64,000 bases of DNA from a candidate division TA06 bacterium (lineage in GTDB: Bacteria; Edwardsbacteria; AC1; EtOH8), in contig JACRJI010000008.1 in NCBI GenBank assembly GCA_016235665.1, positions 248,001 through 312,000 of the forward strand, read 5' to 3'. The notes beneath the pieces are model-generated. The model was not told the DNA's origin. It ran no database searches and saw only the letters and a program-made list of their open reading frames with translations. The position numbers and the translations under genes were made by a program. Positions 2,077 through 10,410 of the stretch are shown piece by piece. Positions within the stretch are counted from its first letter, which is position 1. Each line of letters opens with the position of its first letter.

Positions 2077-2196
2077 TTAATAGCACACCTTGGTCGGAAT
2101 GCACAGGTTATCCGCACAACAAGAGATCGGTGCCGCATTTTCGCTTTCTGCCTCTGTAGTATAGATATTGTGCTTTCCTGTTCTTAAAATCTCCAT
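2077..2196 (-). CDS. Candidate RiPP precursor peptide, 39 aa, Cys-rich C-terminus
   Basis: This short frame is preceded by a near-perfect GGAGGTGA Shine-Dalgarno 6 bases before the ATG, one of the strongest ribosome sites in the region. The peptide opens with MEILRTGKHNIYTTEAESE, a charged leader-like half. It ends in APISCCADNLCIPTKVCY, a core-like half with four Cys in the last 14 residues (26, 27, 32, 38). It has no signal peptide and no double-Gly site. It lies 91 bases downstream of a radical SAM/SPASM gene on the same strand, the usual arrangement of sactipeptide or ranthipeptide-type precursors with their maturase. A 10-bp hairpin follows. The substrate role is inferred from context and composition; I do not recognise a named precursor family. 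Confidence 0.72.
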   Translation of the reverse strand: MEILRTGKHNIYTTEAESENAAPISCCADNLCIPTKVCY

Positions 2197-2287
2197 ATAT
2201 TCTCACCTCCTTTCTATATAATGATAACGAATCAAAGAAAGGCTGCGCATGCCATTTCACGATCCGCATAATTGCCTTTATTACTTA

Positions 2288-3643
2288 TCATATCTTATCA
2301 AGTTTTTTAACAACCTTGCTTACCGCCCTTTTTAAAAATTCATCCCAATATTCGCATATGCCCGATTCTTCCGGCCGGGCATACCTTTTCCTTACAGTGG
2401 GGCATCCTCCCATACAAAGCGGAAGCAGCTTACAATTTCTGCATATTTCATTATCTATTGGGCTATCTATGAACCATTTTGAAATATTATGATTGGGGCG
2501 GAACGTACCGCCGGAGATAACGCCGCAGTCCTCGTTCTTTCCCAAGGCAGAAGCGCATCTGTATACCTTGCCTCCCGGACCCAGGATCCAGGACCCCATG
2601 AAATCGGCCGAACAATACCTTCCCCTTAAGGGAATCAAGCCGATATAACTTTTATAATCAAAATTCTCCTCGGCGTATTTGGCGGTTCCGGTGACTTCGC
2701 TGAAGTGATTTTCCACTTCGATATAGTCCTTGCCGTCCAGTGATTTCTTGTCCGTCCGCCAATCTATGCAAGTAGTGCTAAAATCCTTTAAATGTCCGGC
2801 CCGGACGTTCACGTTATCGCCCATCATCCATTTTTGTTCCAGCAATTCGTAGGCGCTCTCCTTGGTCTCCTTATCAATATGTATGCGCACAGTAACTTTT
2901 TCAAACACATCTTTCGCTATTATTATCGCTTCCTTAATTTTGCCGAAGGTAGGCCCGCCGTTCTTTAGCATCCTGCGGCGGTTGTGTATTTCTTCTGTAC
3001 CGTCCAGCGTAATTTGAATATGAATGACCCCCAGTTCCTTAAGTCTTTCCGCCCTTTCCCTGGTCAGCAAATATCCGTTGGTTATTATATGGGCGATATA
3101 TTCGATACCGTGTTTTTTGCTCAATTCCATGAGTTTCAAGCTCAATTCCTCAACTATCGCATACCCCAGCAAAGGCTCCCCGCCATACCAGTTGACGAAC
3201 AATTGAGGCGGCTTTATTGTTTTTATTTGTTCATCAACAAATTCCACAATCCTGTCAATATCTTCTTTACCCATTGTGCTGGCATACGGCTCCTCAAAAC
3301 AATAGGTGCACTTGCAATTGCAGGCCATCGTTGGCAGCACAGTTATGGCAAGGCTTTTGGCATTGAACCTGCCTTCCATTATCCTTAGTTTTACCAGGTC
3401 AAGCTCGTTAATTCTCTTATCTAAAATGTAACCATTGTTTACCATTGTTTCGAACAATTCGCCATTATCACTTTTTTTATTGGCATTGGGATCTTTTAGA
3501 ATAGCAGACACCTGTTCTTTGTCTTTATCCAGTAGTTTTGCCATAGCACCGGTATAGGTATTGTATAAGATCGTTACCTTTTCAATGTTAAATGTATAGT
3601 TATAAAATGACGGTTTATAACAAATATTGTCCGTATTTTCCAT
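2288..3643 (-). CDS. Radical SAM/SPASM peptide maturase, 451 aa
   Basis: CNCKCTYCFE (about residue 108) is the radical SAM CxxxCxxC 4Fe-4S motif. NWYGGEPLLG (about 152-161) is the GGEP SAM-binding motif. The C-terminal third has the SPASM pattern: Cys in GRYCSADF and YRCASALG, then CRNCKLLPLCMGGCP and a final GICEYW, which would hold auxiliary clusters. The first 90 residues carry a YNTYTGAMAKLL segment of the kind seen at the N-terminus of peptide-modifying SPASM enzymes, plausibly a leader-binding domain. Known relatives install thioether or C-C crosslinks in ribosomal peptides. The partner here is very likely the 39-residue peptide downstream (2077-2196). Confidence 0.88.
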   Translation of the reverse strand: MENTDNICYKPSFYNYTFNIEKVTILYNTYTGAMAKLLDKDKEQVSAILKDPNANKKSDNGELFETMVNNGYILDKRINELDLVKLRIMEGRFNAKSLAITVLPTMACNCKCTYCFEEPYASTMGKEDIDRIVEFVDEQIKTIKPPQLFVNWYGGEPLLGYAIVEELSLKLMELSKKHGIEYIAHIITNGYLLTRERAERLKELGVIHIQITLDGTEEIHNRRRMLKNGGPTFGKIKEAIIIAKDVFEKVTVRIHIDKETKESAYELLEQKWMMGDNVNVRAGHLKDFSTTCIDWRTDKKSLDGKDYIEVENHFSEVTGTAKYAEENFDYKSYIGLIPLRGRYCSADFMGSWILGPGGKVYRCASALGKNEDCGVISGGTFRPNHNISKWFIDSPIDNEICRNCKLLPLCMGGCPTVRKRYARPEESGICEYWDEFLKRAVSKVVKKLDKI

Positions 3644-4076: not shown

Positions 4077-4458
4077 TTATTCGGGAATATACCTGGAGAA
4101 ATACCATGTTCCATTCGTGCCGTATGAAGACCCGTCGTAATAAAACAGTCCTGAATAACGTTTAATTGGCCCGGCTGTATCAGCAGTCAAATAATAATAA
4201 CCTGCCGGTGGACGAAGTTCCCAGGACAAGCCAAAACCACCATTGATAGCTGCAACAGTGCTGCCATAAGTGCCGCCGCCGCATGTGATGGTCCAGCCGT
4301 TTAAAGCATCAGTATTGAAGATTGCAATTCCGTTCACCCAACTGGGCTCGGCGTATAATAAAACGGAACTCAGTATAACAACTGCTATTACCAATGCAAT
4401 TATTTTATTCATTTGAATACTCCTTTTGTTTATTTCACTTCTATTTAGTTATTCTCAT
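4028..4458. repeat. Inverted repeat pair bracketing the 4077-4412 gene
   Basis: The 22 bases at 4028-4049 are matched by the reverse complement of 4437-4458 at 20 of 22 positions (shared start ATGAGAATAAC, shared end AGAAGT). The arms stand 27 bases beyond the stop and 24 bases before the start codon of the enclosed gene. Confidence 0.8.
4077..4412 (-). CDS. Small exported protein A, 111 aa (paralog family)
   Basis: MNKIIALVIAVVILSSVLLYAEPS is a typical Sec signal peptide. The mature part is about 90 residues, rich in Gly, Tyr and Thr. Its ELRPPAGYYYLTADT segment resembles the strand of carboxypeptidase-regulatory/transthyretin-like folds and the GYY segment of five other small genes nearby. 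It is the most divergent member together with the next one and lacks the C-terminal HPxHN motif of four of them. AAAGGAGT-like sequence precedes the start. The gene sits inside a private inverted repeat. The function is unknown. Confidence 0.7.
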   Translation of the reverse strand: MNKIIALVIAVVILSSVLLYAEPSWVNGIAIFNTDALNGWTITCGGGTYGSTVAAINGGFGLSWELRPPAGYYYLTADTAGPIKRYSGLFYYDGSSYGTNGTWYFSRYIPE

Positions 4459-4563
4459 TATGTTGTAATTCCCTATATACCCCGCACTTCAGGCAATAAA
4501 ACCTTGGCCGTATATCACTCCTTCGTGTTGGGTTTGTAATTTATGTTAACCTATATTCTGTAT

Positions 4564-4972
4564 TGTTAGCAATAAAAAGCACATTTTTATTATGAGTTAT
4601 TCCGTTGGTGGTTCAAAATTAACGTTACCACAATCAGTTGTATAAGAGCCATTGTGGTAGTACGTGGAAACAGAAACCAATGAACCCTGATACCTTTTTG
4701 TGGCAACTAAAGTATAATAACCAGCATCGGGATAATAACCCTGTACTTCAAAATAGCCATTACTACTAGTTACCCCCGAACCACAACTGGGTTGACCGCT
4801 TATAGTAATTGTATAGCCAACCAATGGTACGGAACCATTAGTAAAAGCATAACCTTTAAATACGACGACAGCAGCTAAACCTGTTGAGACCATTAATATG
4901 ATCGACAGGACAGCAAGTAATGCAATTCTTCTCATTTTTCCCCTTTCGTTTATTGGCTTTTTATTGCTAACA
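4564..4972. repeat. Inverted repeat pair bracketing the 4597-4935 gene
   Basis: TGTTAGCAATAAAAAGC (4564-4580) is perfectly repeated in inverse orientation at 4956-4972. The arms lie 16 bases beyond the stop and 20 bases before the start codon. The sequence is unrelated to the repeats around the neighbouring genes. Confidence 0.85.
4597..4935 (-). CDS. Small exported protein B, 112 aa (carboxypeptidase-regulatory-like fold)
   Basis: The signal peptide MRRIALLAVLSIILMVSTGLA is followed by one domain with the classic order of a regulatory-like beta sandwich: VVVFKGYAFTNGSVPLVGYTITISG, then TSSNGYFEVQGYYPDAGYYTLVATK. The SSNGYFEV / GYYTL pair is the signature that links it to proteins at 5502, 5954, 7835 and 8369. 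There are two Cys (PSCGSG and TDCGNV), which may form a disulphide. It is enclosed in a perfect 17-bp inverted repeat. It is probably periplasmic or surface exposed; the role is unknown. Confidence 0.72.
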   Translation of the reverse strand: MRRIALLAVLSIILMVSTGLAAVVVFKGYAFTNGSVPLVGYTITISGQPSCGSGVTSSNGYFEVQGYYPDAGYYTLVATKRYQGSLVSVSTYYHNGSYTTDCGNVNFEPPTE

Positions 4973-5017
4973 TTTTTTTAGGAGGATCCGCTTATGATGT
5001 GATTGGGCAATGCCCCC

Positions 5018-5359
5018 TCACTGCAATAGCTCCAGATTATACGCCGCCGCGCTCTGCGCATCCCCGGCATAAAGCTTCTGCCCGGCCAGGGTGATCTCCC
5101 AAAGCTCCTGATACAACAGGCCCATCTTAAGCCTAAGCTCCCGCTCCTCCCCGCCCCGGAACCTTTGGGCCAGGGCCTTGTCCACCTGTTTTTGGGTCTC
5201 CTTTACCTTTGACAGGAACCCCTGCGGCAACAGACCGGCCGGTTCCAGCCCATCCATTGTGGCCACCAGCATGGTGTAATCGGCTTGAGCCAAAAGATCG
5301 GCGGCTTCCAGCCTTTGAGCGGTAAGGATCAGTTCCTCGGAAGTTATGTTGGTTAGCAT
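5018..5359 (-). CDS. Hypothetical cytoplasmic protein, 113 aa, helical
   Basis: I chose the ATG at 5359 (MLTNITSEELILTAQRL) because AGGAG lies 4 bases upstream; an ATG four codons earlier lacks a ribosome site. The product is almost entirely helical and charged (for example FLSKVKETQKQVDKAL), without signal peptide or Cys. It could be a FliT/FlgN-like or other small helical chaperone, but that is only a resemblance in size and composition. Its GC-richer codon use contrasts with the AT-rich exported genes on both sides. Confidence 0.5.
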   Translation of the reverse strand: MLTNITSEELILTAQRLEAADLLAQADYTMLVATMDGLEPAGLLPQGFLSKVKETQKQVDKALAQRFRGGEERELRLKMGLLYQELWEITLAGQKLYAGDAQSAAAYNLELLQ

Positions 5360-5501
5360 TCGGCTCCTCATGGTAACTATGATACTGAATACTGAATAGT
5401 GGTAATTGATACTGGCTACCTAGCAGGGTCTACTGGGCAGTACCTGCTGAATAGCGTATTGTTCTCTGGAAAATTTTTCGTTAATACCGGTTTCCTAAGT
5501 T

Positions 5502-5870
5502 TCATTGCAGATAGTTGTGAAGAGGATGAGTAGTGGTATGCAGATAGGTAGTGCCAATATGGACCACGTTTTCCCCGTCAAAGTAAAAGTTCACATGGTC
5601 CCAGCCGTGGCTGTCGCGGATACACAGGTTGTAATAGCCGGCAGTAGTGATGTAATAATCATGTATTTGGAAACATCCGGAGTTGTAAGTGCTAGTATTG
5701 TAATTAAGGTACAGCCAATCGCAGGAATACAGATAAACTATTGCTCCGTCATGCCCAGAATCGCCCAGGAAGACATAACCATCGCAAAAAAGAGGATTGG
5801 CCATGGAATCGGTGGCAATGGCAGTTGTTGCCAGGGCCGACAGCATTACTATGAGAAATATATTTTTCAT
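5502..5870 (-). CDS. Small exported protein C, 122 aa (paralog family, HPxHN tail)
   Basis: An N-terminal signal peptide (MKNIFLIVMLSALATTAIA) precedes a mature domain with FLGDSGHDGAIVYLYSCDW, TTAGYYNLCIRDSHGWDH and the ending THPLHNYLQ. Closest in order and spacing to protein D (5954-6337): GHxGAxVxLYSxDWxYL and GYYNLCIxDxxGWxHxNFYxDG are shared. Four Cys could pair. The Shine-Dalgarno is weak (AAAGTGAAAA). Unlike the neighbours, I find no convincing inverted repeat around it. The function is unknown. Confidence 0.7.
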   Translation of the reverse strand: MKNIFLIVMLSALATTAIATDSMANPLFCDGYVFLGDSGHDGAIVYLYSCDWLYLNYNTSTYNSGCFQIHDYYITTAGYYNLCIRDSHGWDHVNFYFDGENVVHIGTTYLHTTTHPLHNYLQ

Positions 5871-5927
5871 TTTTTCACTTTTTTTAATATTTTTCGGTTT
5901 GTCGGATAATAATTAATAATACAAATT

Positions 5928-6381
5928 ATAAAGCTGGAAAAGAATCAGTTATTTTATGGCAGATAATTGTGTACGGGATGTTTGGTAGTGTGTAGATACA
6001 AGTTCCCCACATTGGTCATGTAGTTGCCGTCATAGTAAAAATTATAATGTTCCCAACCGTCACCATCAATGATGCACAGGTTGTAGTATCCCGCGCCTTC
6101 GGTGCACTTATTTACCAGAAAATATCCCGGCGAGGAACTGTCCGGATAGCTGACTGTGGTTGAGTAGTGGTCCAAGTATGTCCAATCGGCAGAGTACAAT
6201 TTTACCGTGGCCCCGTTATGCCCGGTTGATCCCAAAAATAAGCGGCCATAACAGATTGCAGGCAAAGCATAAGAAGTAGTAGTTAATCCGATGACCACCA
6301 AAGCGATCAATGCTGCGAGGATTAAAATCCGTTTCATTTTTCTCCTTGTTTTGATTGTTTATGATTCTTTTCCAGCTTTAT
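5928..6381. repeat. Perfect 20-bp inverted repeat bracketing the 5954-6337 gene
   Basis: ATAAAGCTGGAAAAGAATCA (5928-5947) recurs exactly, inverted, at 6362-6381. The arms are 6 bases beyond the stop codon and 24 bases before the start. A consensus-like promoter lies just outside the right arm (6408-6436). No target-site duplication is visible outside the arms. Confidence 0.9.
5954..6337 (-). CDS. Small exported protein D, 127 aa (paralog family, HPxHN tail)
   Basis: MKRILILAALIALVVIGLTTTSYA is a signal peptide; AAGGAGA precedes the start. The mature part has CYGRLFLGSTGHNGATVKLY, then GYFLVNKCTEGAGYYNLCI and the ending KHPVHNYLP. The order is that of a single regulatory-like/transthyretin-like beta sandwich with Cys added. 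It is the only member with a good sigma-70 promoter directly upstream, and that promoter is outside the inverted repeat that encloses the gene. Probable secreted or surface protein; no known function. Confidence 0.75.
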   Translation of the reverse strand: MKRILILAALIALVVIGLTTTSYALPAICYGRLFLGSTGHNGATVKLYSADWTYLDHYSTTVSYPDSSSPGYFLVNKCTEGAGYYNLCIIDGDGWEHYNFYYDGNYMTNVGNLYLHTTKHPVHNYLP

Positions 6382-6407
6382 TTCTCTCAATTTCAGTTTC
6401 TTGACCG

Positions 6408-6436
6408 TTTATATTACAATACAATCTCGTATTCAA
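6408..6436 (-). promoter_or_regulatory. Sigma-70-type promoter for the 5954-6337 gene
   Basis: On the minus strand TTGAAT (6436-6431), a 17-base spacer, then TATAAA (6413-6408). The predicted start near 6401 puts the right inverted-repeat arm (6362-6381) inside the 5' leader and leaves the promoter outside the repeat-bounded segment. Confidence 0.6.
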
Positions 6437-6560
6437 ATATGCCCGGCAATAATTCACGGATATCATTATCATTAACAACAGATATAGCGGAAATGTTGGA
6501 TGGCAATTCACGTTCCGGTTAAGTGATCTATGATTCCAATATTGACTAACAAACAGACAA

Positions 6561-7781
6561 TCAATATCCTTTTCTCCCCAATTTACTTTTACTTAATATT
6601 ATCTTAAATAATTCCCCCACTTTTTCTTTCCCATCATATAACACTCCGTTGTAAAAGGCGACAGGCATTCCATAGGTCATCATCCCGGTTTTTTTTTGCA
6701 AATCCATCAGCTTTTGATAATTACTGGCATTCGTTATGTCCGTATATCTTATCCTTTGTTTCATTACTTTCTTTGTATTTGGCAAACTGTTTTCAATAAT
6801 TTCTCTGCAATCATCGCAATTTGGTGCGTAAAATAGAATAATCTCATTTTTCAGCACAGTAATCATATCGCTTTTATCTGTGACCAGCATAGACCTGCTT
6901 ATTACGCTATCGTTTCCAGCTACGCGTATATATATATCCACTGCAGTTGCTGTTTCCGAGTTACTTTCAATACTGCTGTCTATGGGTGATTTAATGAAAT
7001 CAAATACCTTTGCTGTGCTATCATAGCTCGCCTGCCAAGTTTGAAGTCCCTTACTGCCTGGGTTAAGTATAAATACACGGCCCTTGTTTCTTTTGTCATC
7101 AATCCCTTTCTCTCCGTTACTTGTGATTATCAGCAGCGGTTTATCATCTTTATAACTTACCACTAATTCATTCTCGTCCTCAATGCTCATATCTGAAAGT
7201 ACTACGAATATATCGGTTCCTTCCTTATAACTAATGAATTCATTAAATATGCTTTTTGTAACCGGTAGCACTTTGAGTTCTTTGGCATGTTCCTCTAATA
7301 AAGGTGATTTGACCCTTATATCGGAAATCGCACTCGTGATTACATACTTTACACCATTCAATTCATACCGAACAGATCTATTCGTCAGCGGATTACCGGC
7401 ATAAAACAGGTTGCAATTAACCCAGGGTAGACCAGCTGTTTTAACATTCATTATTTCAGGGAGTAATTCACCTTTTAATTCAGCCCATCCCACGCCAACT
7501 GCTGCTATATTCATTTTACTTAATTGTTGTAATATAAGATTATTTTTTGTCTTGTTTCCCAATAAATCCATATTATTTCCGTTTAATAACACCGGACCGA
7601 TTGTTTTATAATTATAACTAACCGTGTGTATTTTAGCCAAACCACCCATATCCCTGCCACCGCATTGGCATGATGAAACCTGCCCATTTATCGGTGCTAT
7701 GGCGATAACGTTCACATTTTTAGCCCATGAGTTGCAGATAGTTAATAATAAAAGAATCGTGAATAGTTTAGTATTGATCAT
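6561..7781 (-). CDS. Exported UshA-like protein with C-terminal thioredoxin-like domain, 406 aa
   Basis: The signal peptide MINTKLFTILLLLTICNSWA is followed by INGQVSSCQCGGRDMGGLAKI. This matches the pattern of exported metallophosphoesterase-like (UshA/5'-nucleotidase superfamily) proteins that carry CxC and GGLA(R/K). A body of about 230 residues follows with FVVLSDMSIEDENELV and IITSNGEKG, so some metal ligands may be lost. From about residue 315, IILFYAPNCDDCREIIENSLP is a thioredoxin-like strand with a CxxC motif, then GMPVAFYNGVLYDG resembles the cis-Pro loop. It is embedded among the Cys-containing small exported proteins, so a redox or folding role for them is a reasonable guess. No enzyme activity can be assigned. 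Confidence 0.65.
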   Translation of the reverse strand: MINTKLFTILLLLTICNSWAKNVNVIAIAPINGQVSSCQCGGRDMGGLAKIHTVSYNYKTIGPVLLNGNNMDLLGNKTKNNLILQQLSKMNIAAVGVGWAELKGELLPEIMNVKTAGLPWVNCNLFYAGNPLTNRSVRYELNGVKYVITSAISDIRVKSPLLEEHAKELKVLPVTKSIFNEFISYKEGTDIFVVLSDMSIEDENELVVSYKDDKPLLIITSNGEKGIDDKRNKGRVFILNPGSKGLQTWQASYDSTAKVFDFIKSPIDSSIESNSETATAVDIYIRVAGNDSVISRSMLVTDKSDMITVLKNEIILFYAPNCDDCREIIENSLPNTKKVMKQRIRYTDITNASNYQKLMDLQKKTGMMTYGMPVAFYNGVLYDGKEKVGELFKIILSKSKLGRKGY

Positions 7782-7801
7782 TTTTAGAAACTCAGTCTTT
7801 T

Positions 7802-8278
7802 TAAATTCAACAACCCAACAGATTATTTAATTAACTATTGGCACATGTTGTGTGAGGGATGTGCGCCGCTCTGGAGAACAATATTGTCGAATACCGCTCC
7901 GGTATATACACAAGTGGAATAGAAATTAAGCACATGAGCCCACTTATTACCATATGTTACGCACAGTGAATAATAACCTGCCTGATCCTCGGGATAATGG
8001 GCATCTATATCAAAACGCCCATCCGAAGTTGTAGTGGTATTGGGCCAATAAGTATCACCGCACCAACCCCCATCCGAATGTTCGCAATGCACGGAGGCAC
8101 CAGAGACAACAACTCCATTGTCCCATACAATTCCGGCGACAATCCAATTCCCTGCAAAAGCTGACGTCACTGGGCAGGCAACTATTGCAATCGCCATGAT
8201 AATTAAAATAAGTCTTTTCATTTTTGTCCTTTTTGTCTTTGATTGTTTGTTGATAGAACTGTTGGGTTGTTGAAATTA
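7802..8278. repeat. Inverted repeat pair bracketing the 7835-8221 gene
   Basis: TTCAACAACCCAACAG (7806-7821) recurs exactly, inverted, at 8259-8274. With one mismatch the arms extend to 20 bases (7802-7821 and 8259-8278). The arms lie 13 bases beyond the stop and 37 bases before the start. A one-mismatch half copy, CTGTAGGGTTGTTG (8786-8799), occurs upstream of the next paralog at 8752. Confidence 0.85.
7835..8221 (-). CDS. Small exported protein F, 128 aa (paralog family, HPSHN tail)
   Basis: The signal peptide (MKRLILIIMAIAIVACPVTSAFA) is followed by GIVWDNGVVVSGASVHCEHS, GWCGDTYWPNTTTT, DGRFDIDAHYPEDQAGYY and the ending AHPSHNMCQ. It is a near duplicate of protein G (8369-8752): long blocks are identical, including SGASVHCEHS and YPEDQAGYY. 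Cys residues at matching positions suggest conserved disulphides. It lies inside its own inverted repeat. The fold looks like one regulatory-like beta sandwich; the function is unknown. Confidence 0.75.
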   Translation of the reverse strand: MKRLILIIMAIAIVACPVTSAFAGNWIVAGIVWDNGVVVSGASVHCEHSDGGWCGDTYWPNTTTTSDGRFDIDAHYPEDQAGYYSLCVTYGNKWAHVLNFYSTCVYTGAVFDNIVLQSGAHPSHNMCQ

Positions 8279-8368
8279 CAGTTTAATATAAGACTAACGC
8301 TCTTTTCGTTTTACTCTGCTTCATAACCTGCCTATATCCAATTAGTCACTATCTGATTGTTGGATTAA

Positions 8369-8752
8369 TCATTGACACGTATTATGAGATGGGTGTGCCC
8401 CGCCTTGGAGGGAAACATTCCCAAGATTTCCACTGGTTATCATATTGGAATAAAAGTTAAGCACATGGGCCCGCTTGCTGCCATATATTATACACAAATT
8501 ATAATAACCGGCCTGATCCTCCGGATAGTGGGCAGATATATCAAAACATCCGTCCAAAGTTGTAGTGGTATTGGGCCAATAAGTATCACCACACCAACCC
8601 CCAGCCGAATGTTCGCAATGCACGGATGCACCTGACACAACCATACCGTTGTCATATACAGTTCCATAGCATATCTCGCTGCTTGCCGAGATTGTTGCAG
8701 TGACGCCAACAGTAATTATTGCTGCCATGATGGTAAAAATATGTTTGTTCAT
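8369..8752 (-). CDS. Small exported protein G, 127 aa (duplicate of F)
   Basis: Signal peptide MNKHIFTIMAAIITVGVTATISA. The mature part repeats protein F almost block for block (CYGTVYDNGMVVSGASVHCE, GWCGDTYWPNTTTT, SAHYPEDQAGYYNLCI) and ends AHPSHNTCQ. The strongest difference is in the last third (SNMITSGNLGNVSLQ). It shares the upstream CTGTxGGGTTGTTG element with F, but no inverted partner is seen on its 3' side. It looks like a recent tandem duplication. A heptamer tandem repeat lies upstream at 8831-8872. Confidence 0.75.
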   Translation of the reverse strand: MNKHIFTIMAAIITVGVTATISASSEICYGTVYDNGMVVSGASVHCEHSAGGWCGDTYWPNTTTTLDGCFDISAHYPEDQAGYYNLCIIYGSKRAHVLNFYSNMITSGNLGNVSLQGGAHPSHNTCQ

Positions 8753-8830
8753 TGTCTTTTTCCCTTTTGTGTGTAATTTATAGTACTGTAGGGTTGTTGT
8801 TGGTCATTTAATATGGCTCGAAACCTTTTA

Positions 8831-8872
8831 GTGTTTAGTGTTTAGTGTTTAGTGTTTAGTGTTTAGTGTTTA
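8831..8872. repeat. Tandem heptamer GTGTTTA x6
   Basis: Six perfect consecutive copies of GTGTTTA (42 bases) lie between the histidine kinase stop (8884) and the start of protein G (8752). Perfect short tandem repeats change copy number by slippage, so this may be a variable spacer in the G leader. Confidence 0.9.
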
Positions 8873-8883
8873 TTTTTAATTGT

Positions 8884-10410
8884 TCATCGTTTCAGCACTT
8901 CGTGCAGTTTCAAACTCAATTTGTGAAGACTGAACGGCTTCTGCAAAAACTCCACCCCATGGCTCTTGATCAGCGGCCGGATGCTCTCGTCGCTGTAGCC
9001 CGAGGCGAACAGGGCCTTTAGTTCCGGCTTTTGTTTTTTAAGGATCATGTAAAGCTCCCAACCCGAAAGACCCGGCATGATCATATCGCTCATTAAAAGA
9101 TCTATCTTCCCCTGACGCTGGGCAAACATCTCCAAAGCTTGTTCGCCGTTGCGGGCGGGAAGCACCTGGTATCCCAGACTGGTCAAAAGCTGGATCTCCA
9201 TCTCCCGAACTACATCCTCGTCCTCCACCAGCAGCACCACCCCGTGGCCGAACCGGATGTCGGTCTGCTGTTGGGCGTGCCGGCCCTTGCCCTGATCGGC
9301 CGCCGCCGGCAGGAATATCTTGAAGGTGGTGCCCCGGCCCTTTTCGCTGTAGACGTAGATGTGTCCCTGGTGCTGTTTGACGATGCCGTAGACCACCGAA
9401 AGACCAAGGCCGGTGCCTTGGTCCTTGGTTTTGGTGGTGAAGAATGGCTCGAATAAATGTTTTTGGGTCTCGGCCTCCATCCCGGCCCCGGTGTCGGTGA
9501 CTGTGATCAGGGCATAGCGCCCCGGCTCCACCTCGGGATGGGTTTTGGCATAGTTATCGTCAAGGAATTCCTCTCTGGTGGCGATGGAGAACAGGCCTCC
9601 CTGCTCCATGGCATCCCGGGCGTTCACAGCCAGGTTCATCAGCACCTGCTCCATCTGGGACTGATCGGCCATCACCAACGGCAGGTTGCGTCCCAGGGTG
9701 ATCTCCACCTTGATCCTTTCTCCCAGCAGGCGGGAGATCATCCTCTGGAATTCCGTAACCAGGGGATTCAGGTCCAGCACTTTGAACTCCGCCTTGTTCT
9801 TCCTGGCAAAGGTCAGCAGTTGCCGGGTCAGCACAGCGGCCTTTTCCCCGGCCAGAATGATATCCATGATCCGCTGATGCCAGGGATGTCCGGCCCCGGC
9901 CTCGGTCAGCATCATGTCGCCCGAGGTCAGGATCACCTGGAGGATGTTATTCATGTCGTGGGCCAGCCCCCCGGCCAGATGCCCCACCGCTTCCATCTTC
10001 TGGGCCTGAAGCAGTTTTGCTTCCAGTATCTTATTGTCCGTATTGTCTATCACAGACTGATAGCACGCCAGCAGCTTTCCCTCGCCGTCCCGCACCTGGC
10101 CGTGATAGGCCTGAACTGAGATTACTTTGCCGTCCTTGCGCTGGAGCCTGCATTCGCAGTCCAAAAAGCCGTTCTGCCGGGCCAGCAGCATCTGCTGGAC
10201 CATCCGCTCTTTTTCCGCCGGGATCCAGTGGGGATAGGGCGGCCTGGAATCCTGCATGTCGGCCAGATGGTAACCAGTGACCGCTTCCCATGCCGGGTTG
10301 ACATAGATCACCCTGGAATCATCCGGATGGCAGACCATCAGACCCTGGGGCATGTGGTCCAGGAAACTCTGTCCCAGCATTGTCATGTCCAAGTGGTGTT
10401 CGGCAGACAC
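8884..10410 (-). CDS. PAS hybrid histidine kinase with C-terminal receiver, 508 aa
   Basis: A PAS domain occupies about residues 14-130 (DSRVIYVNPAWEAVTGY). The H-box is GHLAGGLAHDMNNILQ (His near 152), the N-box NARDAM, and the G-boxes DTGAGM and GTGLGLSVVYGIVKQH. A receiver domain fills about 390-505 (LLVEDEDVV, then MSDMIMPG with the phospho-acceptor Asp, then LQKPFS). There is no membrane segment, so it is a cytoplasmic sensor. The start is a GTG at 10410 with AAGGA about 10 bases upstream. No output regulator lies next to it; phosphate could move from the receiver to a partner encoded elsewhere. Confidence 0.88.
   Translation of the reverse strand: MSAEHHLDMTMLGQSFLDHMPQGLMVCHPDDSRVIYVNPAWEAVTGYHLADMQDSRPPYPHWIPAEKERMVQQMLLARQNGFLDCECRLQRKDGKVISVQAYHGQVRDGEGKLLACYQSVIDNTDNKILEAKLLQAQKMEAVGHLAGGLAHDMNNILQVILTSGDMMLTEAGAGHPWHQRIMDIILAGEKAAVLTRQLLTFARKNKAEFKVLDLNPLVTEFQRMISRLLGERIKVEITLGRNLPLVMADQSQMEQVLMNLAVNARDAMEQGGLFSIATREEFLDDNYAKTHPEVEPGRYALITVTDTGAGMEAETQKHLFEPFFTTKTKDQGTGLGLSVVYGIVKQHQGHIYVYSEKGRGTTFKIFLPAAADQGKGRHAQQQTDIRFGHGVVLLVEDEDVVREMEIQLLTSLGYQVLPARNGEQALEMFAQRQGKIDLLMSDMIMPGLSGWELYMILKKQKPELKALFASGYSDESIRPLIKSHGVEFLQKPFSLHKLSLKLHEVLKR

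What the first reader, a model, noticed from the sequence alone, without database searches (positions are those of the whole stretch)
4077..8752. Local expansion of six small exported proteins with a shared GYY block and, in four, a C-terminal HPxHN motif
Proteins at 4077, 4597, 5502, 5954, 7835 and 8369 share a signal peptide, one regulatory-like beta domain and a GYY(N/S/T/Y)L strand. Those at 5502, 5954, 7835 and 8369 end HPLHNYLQ, HPVHNYLP, HPSHNMCQ and HPSHNTCQ. A fixed tail at the very C-terminus may bind metal or act as a sorting or processing signal. Such an array suggests variable surface or extracellular effectors.
Basis: partly seen in the sequence, partly recalled or inferred. Interest (0 to 1): 0.65.

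Follow-up and report, generated by a model that had tools for sequence, protein, structure and literature searches.

The report
Small exported proteins with shared tails
A little-studied bacterium carries a cluster of small exported proteins, four of which end in the same short histidine-containing tail and flank a gene for a probable redox protein, which suggests a family of small carrier proteins whose function is still untested.

Summary
Six minus-strand ORFs encode small proteins with a signal peptide and one beta-sandwich domain, and four end HPxHN-x-x-x. They are not one uniform array of six. A tree built without the tails puts the four tailed proteins in one clade with four homologues from this and two related genera. 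The 4077 and 4597 proteins belong to a shorter-tailed branch. The GYY block is the generic motif of the carboxypeptidase-regulatory/transthyretin-like fold, which the AlphaFold model confirms (Z about 10.7). HPxHN itself occurs only in this genome (4 of 19 family members examined). An HxxH at the same place occurs in 6 of 19, in two genera, always together with a second His. A Cys at one fixed arm position occurs in 4 of the 8 arm-bearing proteins. In all three genomes that have it, the gene for a short UshA-like/glutaredoxin-like protein (window 6561-7781) is followed by an arm-bearing protein. That UshA-like domain has lost the phosphatase metal ligands and keeps CxC and CxxC. Best reading: small periplasmic carriers whose arm presents a His or Cys ligand to a redox partner. 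Metal binding is plausible but untested. Diversifying selection and a sorting signal are not supported.

The parts
8369..8752 (-). arm-bearing TTR-like exported protein, tail HPSHNTCQ (HxxH plus arm Cys)
   Evidence: ORF; alignment A2; clade
7835..8221 (-). arm-bearing TTR-like exported protein, tail HPSHNMCQ (HxxH plus arm Cys); 53 bases upstream of the UshA-like gene, same strand
   Evidence: ORF; A2; clade
6561..7781 (-). exported UshA-like/glutaredoxin-like protein, metal ligands lost, CQC and CDDC kept; partner gene
   Evidence: paired with an arm-bearing gene in 3 of 3 genomes that have the short form
5954..6337 (-). arm-bearing TTR-like exported protein, tail HPVHNYLP (HxxH, no arm Cys)
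   Evidence: ORF; A2; clade
5502..5870 (-). arm-bearing TTR-like exported protein, tail HPLHNYLQ (HxxH, no arm Cys); the protein that was modelled
   Evidence: ORF; model pLDDT 87; fold
4597..4935 (-). TTR-like exported protein of the short-tailed branch
4077..4412 (-). TTR-like exported protein of the short-tailed branch (GWTI type)

Best explanation
The array is a set of exported single-domain proteins with a transthyretin-like (carboxypeptidase-regulatory-like) beta sandwich. Four of them belong to an 'arm' subfamily: after the last strand comes a 12-14 residue arm carrying HxxH (and P) or a Cys at a fixed position. I think the arm is a ligand handle. In the HxxH members it would make a three-His site with the W-x-H histidine at the root of the arm, holding a metal ion such as copper, zinc or nickel. 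In members with the arm Cys it could carry a thiol. The handle would be presented to the neighbouring exported UshA-like/glutaredoxin-like protein, which has lost the phosphatase metal ligands and would work through its CxC and CxxC cysteines. The array would then be an amplified, diverged set of carriers around one redox partner. Shown: the ORFs, the subfamily, the fold by prediction, the arm's conservation, the gene pair, the loss of ligands in the partner. Inferred: physical interaction, metal or thiol chemistry, periplasmic place.
For: Four tails kept with synonymous codon changes only at H, P, H, N. The arm-bearing eight are one clade in a tree built without signal peptides and arms (95/91). 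HxxH at the same distance from the last strand in 6 of 8 arm proteins, including G003:C70 of another genus; Cys at +11 after the last-strand Leu in 4 of 8, namely 4 of the 6 that lie by a short UshA-like gene. The W-x-H His is present in 6 of 6 HxxH proteins and 0 of 13 others. In the model the strand that bears it (90-97) comes just before the last strand (103-109), from which the arm leaves; that they form a hairpin is my reading of the strand order. All 3 short UshA-like genes found in the 10 genomes of the family have an arm gene next downstream on the same strand; none of the 9 long UshA-Trx-membrane homologues has a family member near. The partner has a 5'-nucleotidase/SoxB fold (Z 22.2 and 20.6) and lacks the Asp/His/Asn ligands.
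Against: No metal, thiol transfer or interaction was tested, and the model's coordinates could not be read, so the three-His site is not shown. HPxHN is confined to one genome. The G008:C31 and G003:C26 proteins, which are paired with the UshA-like gene, have no HxxH; 5502 and 5954 have no arm Cys; so no single residue is common to all arms. HxxH and W-x-H may be linked by descent (one clade, one loss). The G003:C70 and G000:C1 HxxH proteins have no UshA-like neighbour in the DNA seen (C1 is cut by the contig end). The pair is known from only three genomes and was not found in the flanks of 21 UshA-like loci from other families. The partner's model is only fair (pLDDT 68).
Confidence: 0.38

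Rival explanations
1. Ordinary lineage-specific expansion: small exported beta-sandwich proteins with a structural or adhesive role. The tail is merely an inherited end that has drifted little, and its nearness to the UshA-like gene is incidental.
For: The fold is common and often only structural. 11 of 19 homologues have no such arm. Tandem copies without any redox neighbour occur on C13. The exact tail is in one genome only.
Against: HPxHN columns are more conserved than the rest (P 0.008); the HxxH position is shared with another genus; the UshA-like pair recurs in three genera.
Confidence: 0.35
2. The arms are substrates of the nearby radical SAM/SPASM enzyme (2288-3643), that is, a RiPP-like modification of protein tails.
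For: The enzyme lies 0.4 kb downstream of the array on the same strand and resembles peptide maturases (best Clo7bot TIGR04334, 250.5 bits, cutoff 600).
Against: A 39-aa Cys-rich ORF with a strong ribosome site follows the enzyme (2077-2196), and 2 of 3 other related enzymes in these genomes have a like-sized Cys-bearing ORF downstream (G009, G000:C10). No radical SAM gene was seen near the arm genes of G008:C31 and G003:C26.
Confidence: 0.06
3. The C-terminal tail is a sorting or processing signal.
For: It is at the very C-terminus of exported proteins.
Against: Only these four of 15 HPxHN DNA matches end an exported ORF in this genome; there is no hydrophobic or basic segment as in known C-terminal sorting signals (sequence; recalled knowledge).
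Confidence: 0.07
4. Variable surface or extracellular effectors under diversifying selection.
For: Multi-copy exported proteins that differ strongly in the signal peptide and loops.
Against: dN/dS about 0.28 for the only pair where dS is not saturated; no toxin-like or effector domain found.
Confidence: 0.07

Closest known systems
Carboxypeptidase regulatory-like / transthyretin-like domain (Pfam PF13620; C-terminal domain of carboxypeptidases D and N)
   Same: Seven-strand beta sandwich, GxYxL motif; Z 10.7 (rmsd 1.8, 78 aligned) to carboxypeptidase N and 10.6 to D; weak profile hits
   Different: Stand-alone exported protein; all scores below Pfam's cutoff; the arm is extra
UshA-like (seleno)protein NF041198
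   Same: Window 6561-7781 matches weakly over residues 31-245; CQC lies at the CxU/CxC place given for this family (PMC2398784 and PMC13188914, passages)
   Different: 28.8 bits against a cutoff of 275; has a C-terminal glutaredoxin-like CxxC part; phosphatase ligands lost
SoxB-SoxYZ (thiosulfohydrolase and its carrier protein)
   Same: UshA-fold partner plus small exported carrier with a reactive residue on an arm; SoxB Z 20.6 to the partner's model; carrier-arm cysteine of SoxY (PMC5336275, start of abstract and passages)
   Different: No GGCGG end; Cys in only 4 of 8 arms; partner lacks the metal ligands; no SoxZ-like partner seen
PCuAC/TlpA copper-chaperone and thioredoxin-like pairs
   Same: Idea of a small exported beta-sandwich metal chaperone with a thioredoxin-like partner (recalled; papers seen in the search listing only)
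   Different: Different partner fold and motif; no sequence match was tested

Membership tests
CarboxypepD_reg PF13620 | Score at or above Pfam's gathering cutoff (32.3 bits) | tested here: not met
   Window 7835: 20.4 bits, 8369: 15.0; best homologue G003 29.8 bits
CarboxypepD_reg PF13620 | Transthyretin-like / carboxypeptidase-regulatory fold | tested here: met
   AlphaFold model pLDDT 87; Z 10.7 to 2nsm, 10.6 to 1qmu, 10.2 to 5aq0
5-hydroxyisourate hydrolase / transthyretin-related protein | C-terminal YRGS motif (recalled) | tested here: not met
   No YRGS at the end of any of the 19 aligned proteins; NCBIfam PRK15036 14.1 bits against a cutoff of 217
UshA-like (seleno)protein NF041198 | NCBIfam cutoff 275 bits | tested here: not met
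   28.8 bits; G008 52.2, G003 29.2
5'-nucleotidase / UshA | Metallophosphoesterase fold | tested here: met
   Z 22.2, rmsd 3.0, 259 aligned to 3ive
5'-nucleotidase / UshA | Metal ligands (D-x-H, GD, GNH, later His) | tested here: not met
   D-x-H reads P-x-N, GD reads GN, GNHE reads GWAE, later His positions lost (alignments; ligand list recalled)
SoxB-SoxYZ | SoxY C-terminal GGCGG arm (motif recalled) | tested here: not met
   Tails listed
SoxB-SoxYZ | SoxY fold | tested here: inconclusive
   The 50 rows do not decide it
Metal-binding carrier | Bound transition metal | not testable with these tools
   Needs purified protein

The most novel reading that the evidence does not exclude
A new carrier-arm system that works like SoxY-SoxB but is built from other parts: transthyretin-like carriers present a His or Cys arm to a phosphatase-derived redox protein (CxC plus CxxC), moving a metal, sulfur or selenium atom outside the cytoplasm, with the array supplying carriers of different ligand type.
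Probability: 0.12. Interest if true: 0.65.

Novelty: new variant of a known kind. Interest (0 to 1): 0.38.

Why it matters
If the arm is a ligand handle for the UshA-like/glutaredoxin-like partner, it would suggest a function for a redox branch of the UshA family, whose selenoprotein members appear in the tables of the reviews I looked into (passages only), and would show a carrier-and-partner design that arose independently of Sox. If not, it is one more lineage-specific set of small exported domains.

Tried and rejected
Sorting signal: the HPxHN DNA pattern in the own genome gave 15 matches (backward control 5); only the four window genes end an exported ORF.

Diversifying selection: Nei-Gojobori by script; dS was saturated in 4 of 5 pairs, so only 7835/8369 can be read.

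Homologues beyond the taxonomic family: the genome-contig scan gave one locus, L024, where the match overlaps a 536-aa transporter-like ORF, so chance. In 386 genomes, A5 found 17 full-length places (89 bits or more) in 5 genomes of the own family; the other 34 genomes with a match gave at most 34.1 bits, mostly pieces of long proteins (at most 11 candidates scored per genome). Viral contigs none; plasmids none with 8369. Metagenomes were not scanned (stated cap 0).

Pairing elsewhere: 36 UshA-like loci (21 of other families, 15 views of the nine long genes of the own family) held no ORF that matches A5 or A4 (positive control). Flanks are about 1.5 kb from the match, and only about 0.3 kb behind the long genes, so this is a weak negative. 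By place, no A5 match lies on the long genes' contigs except on G000:C13, about 87 kb away. Small neighbours of the 21 loci show no common partner.

Matches dismissed as signal-peptide or chance hits below cutoff: SH2, Dr_adhesin, ExtJ, toxin B-subunit models. SoxY does not appear in the rows. Promoter-like and terminator-like sites: 28 against a shuffled mean of 21.3, and 5 against 6.3, not useful. No Rfam match in the window. One literature search on TTR-like domains with HxxH gave nothing on point in its listing.

Full report
Observation. The six ORFs are present on the minus strand at the stated places. Each begins with a signal-peptide-like stretch and holds a GYY(Y/T/N/S)L block; four end HPLHNYLQ, HPVHNYLP, HPSHNMCQ and HPSHNTCQ. 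In the alignment of the four, 4 of 5 HPxHN columns are invariant against 17 of 89 other gap-free mature columns (P = 0.008), with synonymous codon changes only at H, P, H and N. 7835 and 8369 are 65% identical, 5502 and 5954 48%; between the two pairs I compared 5502/8369 (34%) and 5954/7835 (32%).

Family. Profile A1 finds 12 places at E <= 1.2e-6 in the own genome: six in the window, two 2-5 kb before its start, three on C13 and one on C1. In the taxonomic family 5 of 10 genomes have a match. Of 386 genomes, only the own family has full-length matches (17 places, 89 bits or more, 5 genomes); 34 other genomes have at most 34.1 bits. Nineteen members were aligned (A5; one of them added by eye). 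A tree of the mature cores, with signal peptides and the eight arms cut off, puts the eight arm-bearing proteins on one side of a branch with support 95/91: the four of the window, G008:C31, G003:C26, G000:C1 and G003:C70. The 4077 and 4597 proteins lie on the other side with the short-tailed members. Branches are long, and the order within the eight is open.

Fold. The model of 5502 (mean pLDDT 87, pTM 0.72) is a seven-strand sandwich whose last strand ends at 109, followed by an arm without secondary structure. The best structural matches are the C-terminal domain of a transhydroxylase subunit and the regulatory domains of carboxypeptidases N and D (Z 10.7, 10.7, 10.6; rmsd 1.8). Pfam CarboxypepD_reg is hit below cutoff. 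So GYY is the fold's usual GxYxL strand (motif recalled).

Arm. After the last-strand Leu or Phe the eight have 12-14 residues, the other eleven 3-10. HxxH at +5/+8 is in 6 of 8, Pro at +6 in 6 of 8, Cys at +11 in 4 of 8 (7835, 8369, G008:C31, G003:C26), and HPxHN in 4 of 8, all in this genome. The six HxxH proteins also carry a His two residues after the Trp (Arg in 8369) of W-x-H; the two arm proteins without HxxH have Arg in that column, and none of the other eleven has His there. Strand order in the model puts this His near the root of the arm; this is inference, as coordinates could not be read. Because the six are near one another in the tree, this is one or two events, not six.

Partner. 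Window 6561-7781 encodes an exported protein with a UshA-like domain (residues about 20-292; Z 22.2 to a 5'-nucleotidase, 20.6 to SoxB; model pLDDT 68) and a C-terminal glutaredoxin- or thioredoxin-like part with CDDC (all weak). The phosphatase metal ligands are lost; CQC and CDDC are conserved in all ten aligned homologues as CxC and CxDC. CQC is at the place given as CxU for UshA-like selenoproteins (PMC2398784 and PMC13188914, passages read; that the places correspond is my reading). In 10 genomes of the family, three have this short form (own, G008, G003), and in all three an arm-bearing gene follows on the same strand. Gaps, by subtraction of the ends, are 223, 78 and 90 bases. In the window two more arm genes lie before it, the nearer 53 bases away. 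Nine genomes hold a long form of about 790 aa with further redox and DsbD-like membrane parts; none has a family member near it.

Reading. I take the arm proteins to be exported carriers or ligand proteins for the UshA-like/glutaredoxin-like partner. That would work like the SoxY carrier arm and SoxB, whose arm cysteine carries sulfur intermediates (PMC5336275, passages), but it is not a member of that system: the GGCGG end is absent and the partner's ligands are gone. A copper, zinc or nickel site made of HxxH and W-x-H is the other form of the same idea. Neither has been tested. An ordinary structural expansion is nearly as likely (0.35 against 0.38).

Selection on the one readable pair is purifying (dN 0.26, dS 0.93). 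The tail is not a genome-wide signal. Homologues without the exact tail are the majority. The six are four plus two.

Noticed in passing
window 2077-3643 (-): Radical SAM/SPASM peptide-maturase-like gene (2288-3643) followed by a 39-aa Cys-rich ORF (2077-2196) with a strong ribosome site: a likely RiPP locus with no family match for the peptide.
   Followed up: partly
L042 6908-8412; L043 7460-9457: Related radical SAM genes in G009 and on C10 of the own genome have 41-aa and 35-aa Cys-bearing ORFs downstream; a third (L041, G005) had none that my gene caller found.
   Followed up: partly
L033 7659-8379; L039 11184-11993; L040 8870-9970: Short-tailed TTR-like genes in three genomes are each followed on the same strand by homologous small proteins with the motif EGNYGKTG-KLQEFGIAPR: a second recurring gene pair of unknown role.
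   Followed up: partly
window 5018-5371 (-): ORF between the TTR-like genes, without family match, related to a 235-aa protein about 2.4 kb from the radical SAM gene of G009 (L042 4009-4716; E 1.6e-12).
   Followed up: partly
L047-L055: About 790-aa fusions of UshA-like, thioredoxin-like and DsbD/CcdA-like membrane parts in 9 of 10 genomes of the family (the membrane part named by eye); L048 also matches SoxB's NCBIfam model at E 5e-14, below cutoff.
   Followed up: partly
window 8820-8890 (-): Short tandem run of cactaaa-type units before the first gene of the array (seen in the sequence).
   Followed up: no
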